Shown in pieces: positions 39,632-64,000 of a DNA stretch of 64,000 nucleotides; the stretch's first letter is position 1; every line of letters begins with the position of its first letter. The notes under the pieces are model-generated. The model ran no database searches, was not told where the DNA came from, and saw only the letters and a list, made by a program, of their open reading frames with translations. The stretch is from NCBI GenBank assembly GCA_019096195.1, contig JAGTXK010000275.1:124001-188000 (forward strand), read 5' to 3'. The DNA comes from Boletus sp. NGJ (lineage: Eukaryota > Basidiomycota > Agaricomycetes > Boletales > Boletaceae). The position numbers and the translations under genes are program-made.

Positions 39632-41000
39632 TCAAATGTAAGTATGTGAGTTGTATCCCCCCCAGAAGTAATCCCAGGTAGATGCATCCCAAGCCGTTAT
39701 ACCGGGTCTGTCATGACCGGTCATCATCTGGAAACCACCTGTGGCATAGGTATCCGTCTGGAAGTTTGACGTGGACGACCCAGCAAAACCATCTGTGTAC
39801 AACCACGACCAGTCATAATCTGTAGGTGGATTGAAAAGACCTCCCGCAGAAACGTCTTGGTTGGGAGCGACCAGCGTGTGACTACTGCTGGATCCGCCTG
39901 CGTGCGATGTGGACACATCGAACGACTGCCCATGGGTGTCCAAGGAAACGCCTTCGTTGGGAACGACCGATGTGGTACCGCCAGAACCTGCAGAAAGGGT
40001 GCTAGTCGCGTCCGGCGACCCTACATAGGCTTGCTGTCCATATACGCCCAGTAAAGCGTGTTCGTTGGGAACGAGTGATACGGCGCTGCTGGAACCGACA
40101 GAACTGGAACCAGTCGCATCCGGCGACTCGACATGGGCCATCCGTCCATGTTCGTCGACACCCTCCTGCAAAGTAGCAGGGAATGAACTGTCGAGCTCCT
40201 CGTGCTTAACGTTGGTGGAATCATCGGCTTCGCCAGCGACATGCGTACGGGAGGATTTCGGACGCTTCGTACTAGTGGCATTCCGTTTTTTGGTTCGCTT
40301 TGGCTTCGAGTTGGTGACACCAGAAGTCGTATTTTCGGTGGCGACGGATGACGGTACTGAGTAGGGGATGAAGATGACGGCCGCATCACGCTGAGGGGAC
40401 GCACATCGGCGCGGGTTGGTGACACCAGAAGCCGTGTTTTCAGTAGCGGCCGGTGATGGTGCTGCGTATGGGATGAAGGTGACGGCCGCATCGCGCTGAG
40501 GGGACGCGCGCCGGCGTGGTACGTATTTATGGACTCTTCTGCGGTGTTTCGTCAACAAGGACCGGTCGTTCGTCCGGTACTTGCAGCGTTCTTCGACTAA
40601 AGACTCAGAACTTGAAGGCTCGCACACTTTGATCATATCGGGGCATGCGTAATTCTTCTCGCCAGTGCTGGATGAACGAAGTGAACACTGAGTGAAAACA
40701 TTGGGGAAGGATAGACTTACTGTTTGGCGATGTGGACTTCGAGATTCCTTGGATCGAGAGTAAAGAATTCGCAGTATGGGCAGTGGTGTAAACTATCGAT
40801 AGTCGTCAAGTTTGACACTGGTCATATCACCAAGATACTTGCACGTACCTGCCGGGGTCGTCGTGACCGGCCTTGTGCTTCTTCAGTTGGAACTCTCGCG
40901 GGAAGACTTGGTCGCAGCCCTCGAACGTACAGGAGAAAGTCTACAAGAAGTCGATTAATTCCGTATACGATGAGACGAATGGAAAACATACCTTTCCCAT
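39632..41000 (-). CDS. C2H2 zinc-finger protein, paralogue B (intact)
   Basis: Four exons (41000-40992, 40940-40849, 40792-40721, 40667-39632) give 402 residues. Finger 1 is FSCTFEGCDQVFPREFQLKKH, finger 2 is CPYCEFFTLDPRNLEVHIAKH, then a TGEK linker and a long, irregular third unit ending in CKYRTNDRSLLTKHRRRVH. The first exon is only nine bases, as in A and C. The C-terminal 290 residues are Ser/Thr-rich, with two sets of tandem repeats (105 bp and about 108 bp), and share little with A and C. The TGEK linker and basic spacer point to DNA binding in the nucleus. A TATAAA lies 112 bp upstream of the ATG. Confidence 0.75.
40311..40520 (-). repeat. Two tandem 105-bp repeats inside paralogue B
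   Basis: The units 40311-40415 and 40416-40520 each encode 35 residues (shared core RRxASPQRDAAVxFIPY). A second in-gene repeat with a 108-bp period (core SPDAT) starts near 40005 and 40113. Both periods are multiples of three, so the frame is kept. Confidence 0.8.
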
Positions 41001-57899: not shown

Positions 57900-57997
57900 A
57901 TATCGAGTTCACGTCATGACATCCGGTTCCGGAAGTTTCTCTGAAATTTCTGAAAAATAAAAAAGGGTGATGCTTGGCCTCTGACAGACACCGAAGC

Positions 57998-58004
57998 TAT
58001 ATAA
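57998..58004 (+). promoter_or_regulatory. TATA box of the secreted hydrophobic protein gene
   Basis: TATATAA 114 bp before the ATG at 58112. A strong TATA box fits a gene that is switched on highly. Confidence 0.65.
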
Positions 58005-58111
58005 TCCCATCCACTGGTTGCTATTCCTCATCGACTTCTTGTCATATTTTGTCACTTTGCCTACTCAAATACCCCACCGTCTCACCAGACACCCCGACGA
58101 TCCTTTCAAAA

Positions 58112-58996
58112 ATGCACTCGTTTGCTCCTGCTTTGATCATTGCCGCTATGGCTACCCTCAGTAGCGCTGCTCCCGTTGGCCTACCCTCAACTAGCCTTAC
58201 TGTCAGTGTGCCAGTTCCCCTTCCCACCAACCTTCCTTCGGTTCCCCTTCCCACTGGAACCACTTTACCAGTTAGTGAGGGTGAAGCCAAATCTGCCATA
58301 GGAGCTGTTCATGCCCGCCATGTCATCACCGCCATCAACTCCATTCAGTCAGACGTTTCCGACGTTCGCGTTCGTACAGCTACACCTTCTCTTGCTGTCA
58401 TCTTCGACACCATTTCGACCGAAATCCAACCTTACACTGAACAATTAAGTATGTTGGAAAGTATCCATATGATTCACTTCTGACGTGCTATGACAGCTTA
58501 CCTTGTTCCCTCCAACTCCACGATCACCGAGATCACCAGCATTATTGGTTCGATCAAGGCTCCCATTGTTGCGGCAATTCCTCAGCTTCAGGCTCTCGCT
58601 GGTCAGGAAGCCAGCATTATCTTGGCTTCTGTTGACGCTGTTGCCGGCGACGCTGGGTTGACCGTCTCTCAAGTTGCCGGTATCGTCGGCGGCCACGTTG
58701 ACGTGCGTCTTGATACAACATTACCGTGACTCAAGCCTGACATGTATTTGTAGTTGGTCCTTAGCGCCGCAGGCAATGTCCTCAACGTTACCAGCGCTGA
58801 AGGCGGCGACATTGTTGCTGATGTCAAAGGCGTCCTCACCGACCTCGGTTACATCCTTACAAGTCTTGTTGGTGCTACTGTCCCTCTTGTCGACGGTCTC
58901 TCTGCTTCCCTCACCTCAGTGGTGACACCCGTTGACTCCGTGATGTCCGACCTTGACTTGATCGACTTAGCTATTCTGCTCGACTTGAGTATCTAA
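58112..58996 (+). CDS. Secreted hydrophobic surface protein (HsbA-like)
   Basis: Three exons (58112-58448, 58497-58702, 58754-58996) give 261 residues. A signal peptide (MHSFAPALIIAAMATLSSAA) is followed by a Pro/Val/Leu-rich linker with a repeated VPLPT motif and then long helices with few charged residues and no cysteine (VITAINSIQSDVSDV; IVAAIPQLQALAG; LGYILTSLVGATVPLVDGL). The amphipathic helical layout resembles hydrophobic surface binding protein A (HsbA) and related galactomannoproteins, which attach to hydrophobic surfaces; this is inference from pattern only. It carries a TATA promoter. Confidence 0.75.
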
Positions 58997-59238
58997 ATAT
59001 GTGCACTTTACTTTTTATGTCTGTGAGAAGCTGCATGTACATAGACACATCCTCAATGTGTAGGGTCTGTTTCAACGCCTTGCCATACCTACGGAATGTC
59101 ACAGATGTTGCTTTCCAGTTGTATGTTGGGATGTGGCACTAGTATTCTGTTGTTTCAAGATCTCTTCAACCATCAAACAATGGGGAAGCTGGATGTGTTC
59201 ACAAGTAAATCATGATTATCAATCTGATTGAAACAGGT
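58997..59238. other. 3' flank and start of an AT-rich island
   Basis: Base composition drops here from the roughly even GC of the genes to clearly AT-rich and stays so to about 62490. No gene is seen in this first part. Confidence 0.5.
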
Positions 59239-60232
59239 TTAGATTGAGATAGTTCTGGTTGACCTGAGCAGATGGTGTGAAATGAGGTTCATTAGCAAAA
59301 TATTCTTGTAGCTACAATAAGGTCCCTGGTTATATGTTGTCATATAGTAAAGTTTGGAAAGATATACATATTTCATGATTGCAACTCTGGTGCATATGCC
59401 ACAGGGACCCATAATATCAACTACTAGTATGGCCAAGCAACAGAAGCTTGCAGCTTTCATGATATACATACATACAGTAAGTACATAGACACATGCCAGT
59501 GGGATGGATCTTGTGCATTATAGGGTTACTGTATGTCTTTACCATCAACAACTGCACTCTTGACATTGGTTTACCTAACCTGCATCTCTGGATTGCACAT
59601 TATTTTGTTATTCAATATCCAATCCAAGCCCTCCAACTGCCTTATGTTATTGGAAGAAGGAACTGCAAAATCTACAAGTCATGACATCTAGCCTATGCTG
59701 TAGAATTAGGTTAGTATATGAAAAATCATGTCATTTCACAACCTACAAAAAGAATGCTGCAAGATTATATCCATAACAAGCTTCTCTTTTTCTTTATCAC
59801 TACTGGCAGCAGAATATTTGACAAAGAGCTCATGCTGTTTCTTGGATACTTGAGTAGATATTCCAGATGCCTTATATCTTTGTACTGCTAGTTCAAAGGG
59901 GTCATCAGATTTGTTTTGGGCAAGAATGAAGGAACATTGAAGAAGCAATATCATGTCTATTAAAAAAGATATAAAAACTGTCAAAACTTGAAATTAATTG
60001 ACTTAACAATGCCATTATGAAGGATCTTTTTCCATCTATCGGCTTTCTTTATAGGCTAAAATACACAAAGATGAATATATCCCTATTATAACTGTACATA
60101 CTAGTACACATACCATGGATATTGCCTTGGTTGTTTGAACAGAAACCTAAAAAACTGGTTTTTAGCAGGCATCTGGTATACATAATTAGAATATAAAAGT
60201 TTTACTGGGTGGGACTGAGACTCTGTGACAAT
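59239..60232 (-). CDS. Candidate ordinary exons downstream of the microexon array
   Basis: On the minus strand several open pieces flanked by splice signals follow the array: 60232 to about 60116 (begins IVTESQSHPVKLLYSNY), 60055-60008 (PIKKADRWKKILHNGI), 59956-59747 (contains DDPFELAVQRYKASG and KEKEKLVMDII), 59662-59580 (NNIRQLEGLDWILNN) and a frame to 59239. They look like real protein in an AT-rich setting, and the 59956-59747 to 59662-59580 join is in phase. The join between 60008 and 59956 is not in phase by any simple donor, so the chain may be two genes, decayed, or misread. No family recognised. Confidence 0.35.
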
Positions 60233-60280
60233 CTGAAAAACATTAGTTATAACATATAGACTTTGAAGATACAAACTGAC

Positions 60281-62474
60281 AGTCTGTTCAAATCATAAAG
60301 AAGAATACTAAATAATCACACAGATATCTTACCTGCTGAATGACAACAAAGGTGGAATGTAAATAACATAGGAATAAATATTGCATGGCAAACCAAACTT
60401 ACATCCTATAGCAATATCAATGCATAAATAAACAATTTGTGGAAAACCAAAATAATACTTACCAGCTAACCATACAAGAGTTTAAATAATAATACAATCA
60501 TGCCAGATTTGACAATAAAATGAAAAATTCAATAAGCAGAATACAGATTTGCATTGTATGTGAGACCACTTACATTCTATTGTGAAGAAAGCATTAGAGG
60601 CAAGCATTGGAGTATTAGTCCATATTATCAATACATATATACATATTTTTCACCTGCTGTGGAAATAAAAGTTAATGTTAATGATGAGTCATATTCTTGC
60701 TATATTTTGGAATTACAATACATACTTGCTATCAAAAGAAAAGTGGTAAAAGACATGGACATGAAAGGATCAGCAGCTAGCCCAGTATTATGCATACAGT
60801 AGCACTTACAAACTATCAGCAGAATAGTGATGGCACCAGAAAGGATGGAAAGCTATTTTCAGCAGTATTTTTAATTTTTCAAGTCCACAGCAGACCACTA
60901 ACTTCCTATCAATGGGAGAAGAGATGCATTTCCATCAGCAAGAAACATCTTTCAAATCCATATCAAATCACTTACATTCTATGAATGGGGGAGTAGTAGG
61001 ATGCATTTCCATCAGCAGGAAACATCTTTCAAATTCACACCAAATCACTTACATCCTATTAATGGGGGAGTAGTAGAATCCATACTTGTTAATAGAATTT
61101 TCATTTCAAATTCACATTAGACAACTCACAAGCTATCAATGAAGAGTAGCAGAATGCATGCTCATTAGCAGGATTCTCATCTCAAAGCTACATAAAACTA
61201 CTTACTGCCTATCAAATGGAAGAGCAGCAGAATGCATGTTTATTAGCAGGATTCTCATTTTCAAGCTACATAAAATCACTTACTTCCTATCAATGGGAGA
61301 GCAGTAGAATGCATGCTTATCAGCAGGATTCCCATTCAAATTGACATCAAATGACTTGCATACTATCAATGAAGGAGCAGTAGAATGCATGCTCATCAGC
61401 AGGCTTCTGATTTGAAAGCTACTGTAGTACTATCAAACCACTATCCAGTTTGTACATAGGATGACTTACTGCCTATCAATGGGAGAGCAGTGGAATGCAT
61501 GCTCATTAGTAGGATTCTCATTCAAAAACTGCAGAGGCACTTACATCCTATGAACAGAAGAGCAGCAGGATGCATGTCCATCAGCAGAATTCTTATTTCA
61601 AGGCTATAGAGCCACTTACATCCTATCAAGGGAGAGCAGCAGGACACATGTTCATCAGCAGGATTCTCATTTCAAAGCTACAGAGGCACTTACATCCTAT
61701 GAATGGGAGAGCAGCATAATGCATGCCCATCAGCAGGATTCTCATTTCAAAGCTACATAGAACCATCTACTATCTATCAATGTGAGAGCAGTAAGATGCA
61801 TGCTTATCAGCAGGATTCTGCTCCCAAGTCCACATCAGACTACTTACATACTATTAATAGAAGACCAGCAGTAGTTAGATTCATTAACAGTGTTATATCC
61901 TCATTGAAACACTTACAAGCTATCAATGGAAATCACAGAACATAAACCTGTCTTTAACACCTTTTACTCAAATTGTATACATGATCACTCACATGCTATC
62001 ATTTGAATGGTAGTTATAGAGGTGAAAAATTTGTTGTCAATAAAATTATATTTTTTATTCACATTTTCACTTACTTTCTTTACATCCAATGATTGTTGCA
62101 GGAATAAATATGAAAAGCTTCAGTTTGTGTCTTTCAGATATAATCAGACTACCTACCTCCTATCATGTTATATCAGGCATGAACCCATTACTACCATGCT
62201 AATTTGCATGTATTCCTATACAACTTACCTCCTTTGAATTCAAACAATAATAAACATGAATTCATTAGTAATACTCATTCAAGGATTCACCTGATTACTC
62301 ACTTGCTATGAAGGCAAGAGTGGTAGAGGATGTCAAGATGAACATTAACATTATTTGTTTTAATGAGCCACCTACATACTATTAAGATAAAATATATCAG
62401 TTTATCATCATTTCAATGTATAATATATTACATACTTGCTTCAAGGAAAGAATAAAATGTAAGTTCTTTGTCAT
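60281..62474 (-). CDS. Array of single-codon microexons (28 AG-NNN-GT modules)
   Basis: A first exon starts at ATG 62474 (MTKNLHFILSLKQ) and ends at a GTATGT donor after 62436. From there to 60281 the minus strand shows an acceptor, exactly three bases, then a donor, again and again. The triplets begin (low coordinate) at 62376, 62303, 62229, 62157, 62075, 61993, 61917, 61848, 61771, 61694, 61620, 61545, 61470, 61360, 61284, 61206, 61130, 61053, 60976, 60903, 60810, 60726, 60654, 60574, 60463, 60403, 60333 and 60281. Typical form is ATTGATAG, triplet, GTAAGTG. Introns would be about 50-110 nt, mostly 70-75. Donors are GTAAGT, GTGAGT, GTAGGT, GTATGT, GTCAGT and one GC (GCAAGT at 61359). No triplet is a stop; 15 of 28 encode Asp, Glu, Asn or Gln. 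Then an open exon of about 39 codons begins at 60232. Whether the cell splices these is unknown. Confidence 0.5.
60895..61860 (-). repeat. Tandem duplicated intron-plus-codon units, period about 75 bp
   Basis: In the centre of the array about twelve units share the intron interior as well as the splice sites: on the plus strand CTTAC, triplet, CTATCAATGGGAGAGCAG, then AATGCATGCTCATCAGCAGG and a TTCTCATTTCAAAGCTACA-like end. One unit near 61381-61460 is irregular (spacing 110 bp). The units on either side of this block keep only the splice-site core. Confidence 0.85.
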
Positions 62475-62489
62475 TTCTGAAAGAAAGAA

Positions 62490-62841
62490 GACCTTAATAT
62501 CTCAAGAGTCGCAAGCGCGATATTCGAGGGAGAGAAAAGGAATTCCAAGATTGAGCTAATACAGGTGTTGTGGCGCTACTTATATACTAACTACTGGCGT
62601 GAGCACGGACCAGCTTAGGGCCGGTCGTGGAACCTACTAGAATGTTCCGTACGACGTACGGTGACGTAGTGGGGTCTAGCCTGTTCTATGGGTATGGGGT
62701 TGTGACGTAGGCTGACTAGTGTGTGACGTATGGTCTAGACGTAAGGTCTAGGCATAATGGTAACTACGTAAGTGCGTTCGTGGGGTCGTCAAGTGTTAGC
62801 TAACTACGTAAATAAAGGCGAAAACGTCCGAGTTCGTATCA
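62490..62841 (-). repeat. Probable 3' LTR of the chromovirus
   Basis: On the minus strand a purine-rich tract (GAAAGGGGGTAA at about 62842-62853) directly follows the pol end, and TGATACGAAC begins the LTR. The other end is placed at about 62490, where GC content falls to that of the AT-rich island. The second LTR is outside the window, so edges and age cannot be fixed. Confidence 0.55.
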
Positions 62842-64000
62842 TTACCCCCTTTCTAGCCATCGAACTCCCGGTCGATGATGATACCGGTGAGGTTGACGTC
62901 GCTATGGGGTGTGGGGATCTCGAAGAGTTGGTCGGGGAGGCGGTTTAGGGAGGCCGCGTACGAGCGGAAGGACGGGTCGTCGAATAGGGGGGTTCCGGGG
63001 AACGCGCAGGTTGGGCAGTCGCACTCGCCGTCGGCAAGGGTGCGGATGGCGGTGGGGTTCTCTCGGTGGAACTTCTCGATCGCCTGTGGGGCGTTTGAGA
63101 CGTTCTTTTTCGGTTCCCATGTGCGTTCCTCGCGGGGGTACCCTTTCCACTGTACTAGGTACTCGGTTCTGCCGCGTCGCTTACGTGAGTCGGCGACGTG
63201 CTCCACTTCGTACTCTTCTTGTTGCTGGACGATAACCGGGGGTGGCGGTTTCGGTTTCGTCTGGGAGGGGGATGTGCCCGGGTGGTAGGGCGTAAGAAGC
63301 GACTCGTGGAATACGGGATGAATCCCTTTCCACGTGCGCGGGAGGTCCTAGCTCGTAGGAGGCCTCGCCGATCTTACGCTTCACCTTGAACGGGCCGTGT
63401 CGTTTGTCGTCGAACTTCTTGGTCGGGCGATCGGTCCGAACGTGGGTTCCTTCGAGTAGGACCTGCTGGCCGACCGTGTATTCGACGGCGGGGGATGCAC
63501 GTTTGTCGTGCGCCTTCTTCATCGCTTCTGCCGCTTTTTCCAGCGCGTCCTTGGCCGTGTTGTGGTGGGTTTTCATTGTTTCGGCGAAGGAGGCGGCGGA
63601 TTCGTTTCTCACTTCCACTCGCTTGTTCGGTATGAGCGGCTGTTGCCCGTAGTTGAGCAGGAAGGGAGAGACGCCGGTTGCGCTGGTGGTCTGCGAGTTG
63701 TGGGCGAACTCGGCTAGGGGTAGCCATTCGGCCCAGTCGGTTTGGCGATGGTTGACGTAGATGCGCAGGTATTTCTCCACCTCTCGGTTGATGCGCTCCG
63801 TCTGCCCGTCGGTCTGGGGGTGGTAAGCGGTAGACGGGTTGGCTTGGATGCCGAGGAGGGAGTAAAGGTCGCGCATGAACGACGACACGAATTGCGTTCC
63901 TCTGTCGGAGATCACCTTGCGGGGGACACCGTGGAGCTTGAAGATCTGGTCGCGGAAGATTGTTGCGACCCCTTGGGACGTTATGGTGTCCATAACCGGT
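62490..64000 (-). mobile_element. Ty3/gypsy LTR retrotransposon, chromovirus clade (3' end)
   Basis: The visible part, read on the minus strand from 64000 down, is the end of pol: integrase catalytic core and its GPY/F-like tail (to about 63200), then a chromodomain (about 63200-63080, with the YLVQWKGYP and TWEP aromatic-cage signature), a C-terminal extension, polypurine tract and 3' LTR. The chromodomain marks the chromovirus clade, which fungi carry commonly and which targets marked chromatin. The element continues beyond the right edge. The visible coding parts lie in more than one frame, so it has perhaps one or two breaks, yet little decay otherwise; it looks fairly young. A single LTR gives no date. 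Confidence 0.9.

What the first reader, a model, noticed from the sequence alone, without database searches (positions are those of the whole stretch)
60281..62474. A gene apparently cut into single-codon microexons
Twenty-eight AG-NNN-GT modules follow one another on the minus strand at a spacing near 75 bp, each offering an acceptor, one codon and a donor, all in phase 0 and none a stop codon. They begin after a plausible ATG exon and lead into an open exon of ordinary size. Outside the central block the units share nothing but the splice sites and the three-base gap, which is what selection for splicing would leave and what decay of a satellite would not. Arrays of consecutive three-base exons are, to my knowledge, not a described gene form in fungi; microexons of 3-30 nt are known singly and in schistosome MEG genes.
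Basis: partly seen in the sequence, partly recalled or inferred. Interest (0 to 1): 0.92.

Follow-up and report, generated by a model that had tools for sequence, protein, structure and literature searches.

The report
Tandem array of single-codon exons
In what looks like a fungal genome, a stretch of DNA carries at least 29 intron-like units in a row separated by exactly three bases each, as if a gene had been chopped into one-codon exons, and its front end seems to have been cut off by a jumping element.

Summary
The array is real and far beyond chance. AG-N3-GTRDGT occurs 23 times against 0.21 expected; gaps 1-2 and 4-12 never occur. A hallmark not used to find the array agrees: the last 24 nt before the 29 acceptors hold 1 AG against 16.7 in shuffles (0 of 500 as low). 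The joined codons are open only in frame 0 and lead into a 43-codon exon open in that frame. I conclude that these are tandem short introns separated by single codons, spliced by intron definition. Correction: the 'ATG exon' and promoter lie in the inferred 3' LTR of a Ty3/gypsy chromovirus that landed in an array intron, so the gene's 5' part is outside the window and 29 is a minimum. The central 12 introns are tandem duplicates (0.71 identity), yet their codons change about 2.35 times faster. No relative, RNA evidence or protein family was found in the collections offered. Expression and translation are unproven.

The parts
62856..63993 (-). 3' part of the pol region of a Ty3/gypsy chromovirus retrotransposon (integrase core, Tf2-type SH3, chromodomain); the reading frame shifts between integrase and chromodomain; runs off the window
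   Evidence: Pfam rve 1.4e-05 and SH3_Tf2-1 1.9e-06, both below the curated cut-off; Chromo 1.5e-17 on 63218-62856; frames seen
   Evidence: sequence; the second LTR is outside the window, so the boundaries rest on the polypurine tract, TG..CA ends and the composition break
62439..62468 (-). remnant of an array intron cut by the LTR: 30 nt with CTTAC (near the branch consensus, not YTRAY), pyrimidine-rich stretch and AAG acceptor; the first 5 bases after the LTR (AAGAA) would be one copy of a target-site duplication
62436..62438 (-). single-codon exon 1 of those kept, CAA
62376..62378 (-). single-codon exon 2, TAT
62303..62305 (-). single-codon exon 3, CAA
62229..62231 (-). single-codon exon 4, GAG
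62157..62159 (-). single-codon exon 5, GAG
62075..62077 (-). single-codon exon 6, AAA
61993..61995 (-). single-codon exon 7, CAT
61917..61919 (-). single-codon exon 8, CTT
61848..61850 (-). single-codon exon 9, TAT
61771..61773 (-). single-codon exon 10, ATA (weak donor GTAGAT)
61694..61696 (-). single-codon exon 11, GAT
61620..61622 (-). single-codon exon 12, GAT
61545..61547 (-). single-codon exon 13, GAT
61470..61472 (-). single-codon exon 14, GCA
61360..61362 (-). single-codon exon 15, TAT (GC donor)
61284..61286 (-). single-codon exon 16, GAA
61206..61208 (-). single-codon exon 17, GCA
61130..61132 (-). single-codon exon 18, CTT
61053..61055 (-). single-codon exon 19, GAT
60976..60978 (-). 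single-codon exon 20, AAT
60903..60905 (-). single-codon exon 21, GAA (donor GTTAGT)
60810..60812 (-). single-codon exon 22, TTT
60726..60728 (-). single-codon exon 23, CAA
60654..60656 (-). single-codon exon 24, CAG (weak donor GTGAAA)
60574..60576 (-). single-codon exon 25, AAT
60463..60465 (-). single-codon exon 26, CTG
60403..60405 (-). single-codon exon 27, GAT
60333..60335 (-). single-codon exon 28, CAG (donor GTAAGA)
60281..60283 (-). single-codon exon 29, ACT (donor GTCAGT)
60906..61847 (-). core of the array: introns 9-20, tandem duplicates with 0.71 mean pairwise identity in their interiors, YTRAY site 29-34 nt before the acceptor in 12 of 12
   Evidence: TRF
60101..60232 (-). likely terminal exon of ordinary size: 43 codons and a TAG, open this far only in the frame that continues the single codons (a GTATGT donor at 60115 offers an alternative ending)

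Best explanation
This is the 3' part of an AT-rich, probably fungal protein-coding gene in which at least 29 consecutive exons are one codon long. Each is separated from the next by an ordinary short U2-type spliceosomal intron (median 73 nt) with its own donor and acceptor and, in most, a recognisable branch-like site and pyrimidine tract. Each intron is recognised on its own (intron definition), probably removed one after another, so that each step adds three bases to the growing exon and exposes the next donor; the last step joins the string to a 43-codon terminal exon (inferred). The array grew, at least in its middle, by tandem duplication of a codon-plus-intron unit. Such growth adds one codon in frame each time and is therefore tolerated, while selection removes units whose splicing fails, because retention of almost any intron brings a stop or a frame shift (inferred). 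The codons themselves drift or diversify. A Ty3/gypsy chromovirus later landed in one of the array introns, cutting the gene's 5' part off from this window. Shown: the anatomy and its statistics, and a chromovirus directly upstream. Inferred: the exact LTR ends, transcription, splicing, translation, and how the array grew.
For: Gap of exactly 3: 23 against 0.21 expected, gaps 1-2 and 4-12 all 0. AG exclusion: 1 AG in 29 x 24 nt before the acceptors against 16.7 in shuffles, 0 of 500 as low; in the 17 units outside the core 1 against 7.2, 1 of 500 as low; pyrimidine fraction 0.73 there against 0.49 upstream. YTRAY within 9-45 nt of the acceptor in 12 of 12 core introns, mean 7.0 and largest 10 in 200 shuffles; over all 29 units 23 against 15.5, largest 23; the core variants (CTGAT, CTAAT, TTAAC) all keep the consensus. 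Donor columns in the 17 non-core units: +5 G in 16, +6 T in 15, -2 A in 13. Joined codons open only in frame 0; the 60232 exon is open for 43, 9 and 14 codons in its three frames, the 43 in the same frame. 28 of 29 introns carry a stop or a frame shift if retained; 1 of 29 is a stopless multiple of three. No conserved fold in 11 of the 12 core introns (0 of 3 predicted pairs with changes on both sides, -0.22 kcal/mol) and no Rfam family.
Against: No RNA evidence. No relative of the locus found, but the collections on offer are viral, plasmid, phage and prokaryotic. Absence of stops in 29 codons is weak (chance 0.12) and the 43-codon exon alone is weak (0.04). Outside the core, branch-site enrichment is not significant (YTRAY 11 of 17, shuffle mean 8.7, largest 15; stricter CTRAY 7 of 17, mean 3.5, largest 8), and in the core the stricter CTRAY (11 of 12, mean 4.7) is equalled by the largest of 200 shuffles. 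No Pfam or PDB match for the joined 72 residues (0 families; best E 0.77). Several donors are poor (GTAGAT, GTGAAA, GTCAGT, GTTAGT, GTAAGA, GCAAGT). The gene is interrupted, so this copy may be dead. Core codons show no correlation with intron relatedness (Mantel r -0.003 and -0.106), so nothing shows that their identity matters.
Confidence: 0.7

Rival explanations
1. The array is spliced as described but is not protein-coding: a non-translated transcript, or a gene already dead after the LTR insertion, whose one-codon spacing is only inherited from tandem duplication.
For: No protein family or homologue. Core codon columns vary more than introns (0.44 against 0.71 identity). The core is plainly built by tandem duplication. 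The retroelement breaks the gene.
Against: Frame 0 alone is open and joins an exon open in the same frame, though the joint chance is only about 0.005 by my arithmetic. Spacing is 3 in units 23 and 26-29, which have no detectable similarity to the core. 29 of 29 AG and 28 of 29 GT are intact, so any loss of constraint is recent; units with lost sites would have been missed, which weakens this.
Confidence: 0.17
2. One long intron with recursive (ratchet) splice points: the modules serve stepwise removal of a 2.2-kb intron and the three bases do not matter.
For: AG and GT lie close together as at ratchet points; progressive 5' to 3' splicing is the natural route for such units; the authors on the Arabidopsis APC11 1-nt exon suggest intron definition combined with recursive splicing (PMC4674806, passages).
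Against: Classical ratchet points are AG|GT with nothing retained (recalled). Here 0 of 29 codons begin with GT, so a used module must retain its three bases (2 of 29 begin with GC). A 2.2-kb intron would be far outside the 48-108 range of the units.
Confidence: 0.06
3. LTR-driven gene: the 3' LTR of the retroelement is the working promoter, and the ATG at its end is the start codon of a new gene made from the array.
For: TATATAAG in the LTR, an ATG in its last six bases, and ATG...CAA is in frame with the array.
Against: The 30 bases between LTR and CAA look like an intron tail, with CTTAC, a pyrimidine-rich stretch and AAG, so the array existed before the insertion. An LTR that ends in ATGACA is a plain LTR end (recalled).
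Confidence: 0.05
4. A decaying satellite or a cluster of protein-binding sites (for instance GATA-type WGATAR in the frequent TGATAG) that mimics splice signals.
For: Tandem repeat of 75-77 bp in the middle; 13 of 30 acceptors, the terminal exon's included, end in GATAG. Cyanobacterial repeat arrays show that ATAG-NNN-GTAAGT can recur at about 72 bp in organisms without spliceosomal introns.
Against: AG is kept in all 29 introns while GATA is not; AG exclusion and the pyrimidine tract have no reason in this reading; in the 21 bacterial loci with the GGA form the three bases never vary, here there are 15 different codons among 29.
Confidence: 0.02

Closest known systems
Microexons, single or in small groups (human RPS24: consecutive 3, 18 and 22 bp exons, PMC12686416; 1-nt exon of Arabidopsis APC11, PMC4674806; 1-nt exon of Fusarium CYP621A, PMC12940212; 2-10-codon exons in Phanerochaete P450 genes, PMC1184071; Trichoderma Xlr2, PMC11121469)
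   Same: Exons far too short for exon definition, flanked by complete introns; fungal examples exist (passages read)
   Different: As far as the passages show, those are one or a few microexons within otherwise ordinary genes; here at least 29 consecutive exons of exactly one codon each
Microexon-rich effector genes: aphid bicycle and megacycle genes (PMC9168663, passages), schistosome MEG genes (search listing and recall only)
   Same: Many consecutive small exons, fast-evolving coding sequence; one aphid gene has more than 100 microexons
   Different: Animal genes, bicycle exons nearly all of phase 2 and larger than one codon (recalled); here phase 0, one codon, introns of about 73 nt; no secretion signal can be assessed because the 5' end is missing
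Introner-like elements of fungi and intron gain by tandem duplication (PMC4457414, PMC4974935: search listing and start of abstract only)
   Same: Families of related introns; tandem duplication as a source of introns
   Different: Introners sit at scattered sites (recalled); the related introns here are found only in one tandem row, with no copy elsewhere in the 64-kb window
Stwintrons (PMC8469720, passages)
   Same: Several intron units in a row removed by successive U2 splicing reactions
   Different: In stwintrons an internal intron interrupts a splice element of an external one; here each unit has its own donor and acceptor and is separated from the next by three bases

Membership tests
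Microexon (internal exon of at most about 30 nt) | Length between acceptor and donor | tested here: met
   3 nt in 29 of 29 modules, a gap far above chance
Microexon (internal exon of at most about 30 nt) | Inclusion in mature RNA | not testable with these tools
   No RNA data; splice signals only
U2-type spliceosomal introns | GT/GC donor, branch site, pyrimidine tract, AG acceptor, no AG shortly before it | tested here: met
   branch-site enrichment significant in the core only, and there only for YTRAY, not for the stricter CTRAY
Introner-like element | Near-identical intron copies at many unrelated insertion sites | tested here: inconclusive
   BLAST of the AT-rich region finds no copy elsewhere in the 64-kb window; the rest of the genome was not available
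Stwintron | Internal intron interrupting donor, branch site or acceptor of an external intron | tested here: not met
   Each unit has its own donor and acceptor and three bases between
Schistosome MEG / aphid bicycle-type effector gene | Short secreted product with signal peptide; many small symmetric exons | tested here: inconclusive
   Many symmetric exons: yes; signal peptide unknown, 5' end cut off by the LTR
Satellite or CRISPR-like repeat | Conservation of whole unit or of a fixed repeat, letters within the motif constant | tested here: not met
   Three bases vary, flank interiors diverge, splice columns stay; 21 bacterial GGA loci keep them constant
Host gene of intron-encoded structured RNAs (snoRNA and the like) | Conserved RNA structure or family match inside the introns | tested here: not met
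   No Rfam match at gathering score or at E up to 2; no covarying fold in 11 of 12 core introns
Ty3/gypsy chromovirus (the neighbour at 62469-63993) | Integrase, chromodomain, polypurine tract, LTR with TG..CA ends | tested here: met
   Chromodomain clear; integrase and SH3 matches below Pfam's cut-off; polypurine tract and LTR ends by eye
Ty3/gypsy chromovirus (the neighbour at 62469-63993) | Two LTRs and a target-site duplication | not testable with these tools
   The other end lies outside the window

The most novel reading that the evidence does not exclude
The array is a splicing-based generator of protein diversity: because every exon is exactly one codon, any subset can be skipped without shifting the frame, so one gene could make a very large family of peptides; the codons, which change about 2.35 times faster than the introns around them, are the part under diversifying selection, and unequal crossing-over changes the number of codons.
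Probability: 0.1. Interest if true: 0.96.

Novelty: new variant of a known kind. Interest (0 to 1): 0.8.

Why it matters
Microexons are known singly or in groups, and their splicing is thought to need special help. A run of at least 29 exons of one codon each would be close to the limit of how finely a gene can be cut, would show that intron definition alone can cope with exons of three bases in series, and would be a natural test of stepwise splicing. It also suggests a path by which introns can multiply without harm: a codon-plus-intron unit that duplicates in frame. Standard gene finders and read aligners would probably miss such a gene, so others may be hidden. The core, where codons vary more than introns, turns the usual pattern round.

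Tried and rejected
Relatives: protein of the downstream AT-rich stretch against viral contigs, 14 pattern stretches, 0 confirmed; core intron motif against viral contigs, 0; whole AT-rich stretch against plasmids, none. No eukaryote collection was offered and no genome is held for the window, so orthologues could not be sought.

Pattern of two ATAG-NNN-GTAAGT modules 50-80 apart: 3 viral and 37 bacterial stretches. 21 of the 37 bacterial stretches, all with titles of cyanobacteria (some genera placed there by recall), carry the letters GGA in every copy at a period of about 72 bp, with closely similar flanks in the two copies printed; they look like CRISPR arrays, by recall. The other 16 bacterial stretches hold pairs or runs of 3-9 copies, some at short spacing; the 3 viral ones hold pairs. 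A useful warning that the pattern alone proves nothing; rejected as relatives.

Structured intron RNA: rejected. Similarity of the 3' exons to known proteins: none; weak hits (Ig_VWDE E 0.036-0.043, far below its cut-off; four PDB chains at E 0.77-1.5) ignored. I tried to extend the gene beyond 60101 by hand; the frames need joins that I could not justify, and open frames of this size are to be expected by chance in such AT-rich DNA (my estimate, no call), so I left 60100-58990 unassigned.

They are unverified candidates from GC-richer DNA, so I give this little weight.

Diversifying selection on codons: the codon positions need 11 changes on the intron tree (13 if each codon is paired with the intron before it); random triples of interior columns reach that with frequency 0.003 (0.0001). 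But 3 of 59 interior three-column windows are as variable by identity, and 1 of 59 (0 of 59) by changes. So suggestive, not shown.

Papers: 10 searches listed no array of consecutive one-codon exons; two of the lists were cut (15 of 32; 12 of 492), and most subscription papers are not in that library.
Full report
What is there. On the minus strand between 62440 and 60285 lie 29 modules of the form AG-NNN-G(T/C). Between them are stretches of 48 to 108 nt, median 73. The codons in order are CAA TAT CAA GAG GAG AAA CAT CTT TAT ATA GAT GAT GAT GCA TAT GAA GCA CTT GAT AAT GAA TTT CAA CAG AAT CTG GAT CAG ACT, that is QYQEEKHLYIDDDAYEALDNEFQQNLDQT. They run into an exon that begins at 60232.

More than chance. 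I counted AG-Nx-GT[AG][ATG]GT for gaps 0 to 12 on the minus strand of 62464-60231 and in 500 dinucleotide shuffles. Gap 3: 23 against 0.21, largest shuffle 2. Gap 0: 2, both being GAG codons that also count at gap 3. All others: 0. On the plus strand gap 3 occurs 0 times. Restricting to the two flanks outside the tandem block found by TRF gives 8 against 0.075 and 5 against 0.028 in 1000 shuffles each. The other 6 of the 29 modules have donors outside that strict pattern.

Independent signs of splicing. Three tests did not enter the definition of the modules. First, functional introns tend to avoid AG just before their acceptor (recalled): the 24 nt before the 29 acceptors hold 1 AG, shuffles 16.7 on average, none of 500 as low; in the 17 non-core units 1 against 7.2, 1 of 500 as low. 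Second, pyrimidines make up 0.73 of positions -22 to -6 against 0.49 further upstream (0.67 against 0.51 in the non-core units). Third, a YTRAY site lies 29-34 nt before the acceptor in 12 of 12 core introns (positions; within 9-45 nt, 200 shuffles give 7.0 on average, 10 at most), with changes CTGAT, CTAAT and TTAAC that keep the consensus. The stricter CTRAY is found in 11 of 12, which the largest shuffle equals, and outside the core the result is not significant (YTRAY 11 of 17 against 8.7, largest 15; CTRAY 7 of 17 against 3.5, largest 8). Eleven of the 12 core introns were folded together and have no conserved fold; no Rfam family matches. Of 29 introns only 1 is a multiple of three without an in-frame stop, so retention would nearly always be harmful.

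Frame. Since each exon has three bases, the phase is set by what follows. The joined codons are open in frame 0 and hold one and six stops in the other two frames. The exon at 60232 is open for 43 codons in that frame and 9 and 14 in the others, ending in TAG at 60103-60101. Neither fact is strong alone: background stop frequency 0.071 gives 0.12 for 29 codons and 0.04 for 43. Together they favour a coding reading; they do not prove it.

The start is not a start. The minus-strand frame 63993-63181 matches integrase core and Tf2-type SH3, both below Pfam's curated cut-off; the stretch 63218-62856 in another frame matches a chromodomain at 1.5e-17, well above it. After the stop codon follow AAAGGGGG, TAA, and then TGATACGAACTCGG..., ending ...GAAATGACA at 62469. 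This is the layout of the 3' end of a Ty3/gypsy chromovirus: pol, polypurine tract, 3' LTR (layout recalled). TATATAAG at 62586-62579 and the ATG at 62474 belong to the LTR. The next 30 bases, AAGAACTTACATTTTATTCTTTCCTTGAAG, look like the tail of an array intron, followed by CAA and GTATGT. So the element landed in an intron of the array, the array is truncated, and 29 is a minimum. The LTR ends are inferred: the second LTR is outside the window, no second copy lies in the window, and LTR edges are also places where assemblies can be joined wrongly.

How it grew. Introns 9-20 (61847-60906) are tandem duplicates with 0.71 mean identity in their interiors (61 columns). Units 1-8, 21, 22, 24 and 25 are weakly but detectably like the core (z 2.2 to 10.7, weakest for units 1 and 5 with 2 and 3 of 200 shuffles as high); units 23 and 26-29 are not. 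Pairs among units 1-7 and 23-29 are at background, 0 of 91 above z = 3. Within the core the last four intron bases ATAG are invariant, the donor columns have identity 0.83-1.0, and the three codon columns 0.35, 0.45 and 0.52. On a tree of the introns the codon sites need 11 changes, 3.7 per site against 1.56 in the interiors; the ratio is 1.87-2.64, median 2.35, over 60 trees (the full-data tree and 59 bootstraps). Codon likeness does not follow intron likeness (Mantel r -0.003 and -0.106). Some interior windows are as variable (3 of 59 by identity; 1 of 59 by changes), so I call this suggestive. It means either that the codons are under diversifying selection or that they are simply free while the introns are held or homogenised.

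How it most likely works. Short introns of fungi are recognised as units (recalled; compare the discussion in PMC4674806, passages). Each unit here has a donor and an acceptor of its own, and the set as a whole shows the other intron signals. After one intron is removed, three bases have been added to the exon and the next donor stands ready, so stepwise removal is natural. In the 17 non-core units the base at -2 of the donor is A in 13, and GTAAGT, which I regard as a strong donor, is used in 16 of all 29, as would be needed when the exon offers so little. None of the 29 codons starts with GT, so once both sites of a module are used its three bases must stay (2 start with GC). Duplication of a unit adds one codon in frame.

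State of the locus. 29 of 29 AG and 28 of 29 GT are intact. By my arithmetic 116 free sites with at most one loss would mean less than about 4% divergence since loss of constraint; but broken units would not have been counted, and intron 14 (107 nt) contains a stretch, GATAG-TAC-TACAGT, that could be such a relic (sequence). The three 1-kb bins 59001-62000 have 33-39% G+C, while the bins below 59000 have 45-59%; this may point to a different origin or to a lineage-specific gene. No database match helps.

What is known. Papers seen by passages: RPS24 with 3, 18 and 22 bp exons in a row (PMC12686416); 1-nt exon in Arabidopsis APC11 (PMC4674806); 1-nt exon in Fusarium CYP621A, called by its authors the first for a fungal gene (PMC12940212); exons of 2-10 codons in Phanerochaete P450 genes (PMC1184071); Trichoderma Xlr2 (PMC11121469); aphid genes with many, in one case over 100, microexons (PMC9168663); stwintrons (PMC8469720). 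Seen as listing and start of abstract only: introner-like elements in fungi and tandem-duplication intron gain (PMC4457414, PMC4974935). Ten searches listed no serial array of one-codon exons. I therefore file it as a new variant of a known kind, the microexon gene, with expression unproven.

Organism. That the source is a fungus, probably a basidiomycete, is my inference from gene density, short candidate introns and the chromovirus; no call names it.

Noticed in passing
window 62469-63993 minus: Ty3/gypsy chromovirus with a shift of reading frame between integrase and chromodomain, so this copy may be degraded.
   Followed up: partly
window 58990-62468: AT-rich island (33-39% G+C in the three full 1-kb bins) in a roughly 52% G+C region, with edges at the LTR and at about 58990.
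   Followed up: partly
window 61363-61469 minus (intron 14): 107-nt intron whose extra part holds GATAG-TAC-TACAGT, possibly the relic of a module whose donor was lost or of a partial duplication.
   Followed up: no
window 62640-62840 minus: The LTR carries repeated TACGTAGTTA and TACGTCAC motifs upstream of its TATA box, possibly sites of a transcription factor.
   Followed up: no
window 57974-58990 plus: Gene next to the island that by eye resembles a hydrophobic-surface-binding (HsbA-like) protein; the open frame 57974-58480 gave no Pfam hit, so the name is recalled.
   Followed up: no
L004, L005, L006, L009, L016, L031 and 15 further cyanobacterial loci: Repeat arrays, CRISPR-like by recall, whose repeat contains ATAGGGAGTAAGT and recurs at about 72 bp, a chance likeness to the splice module.
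   Followed up: partly
window 40310-40507: Tandem pair of a 105-bp unit, 86% matches, inside an open frame.
   Followed up: no
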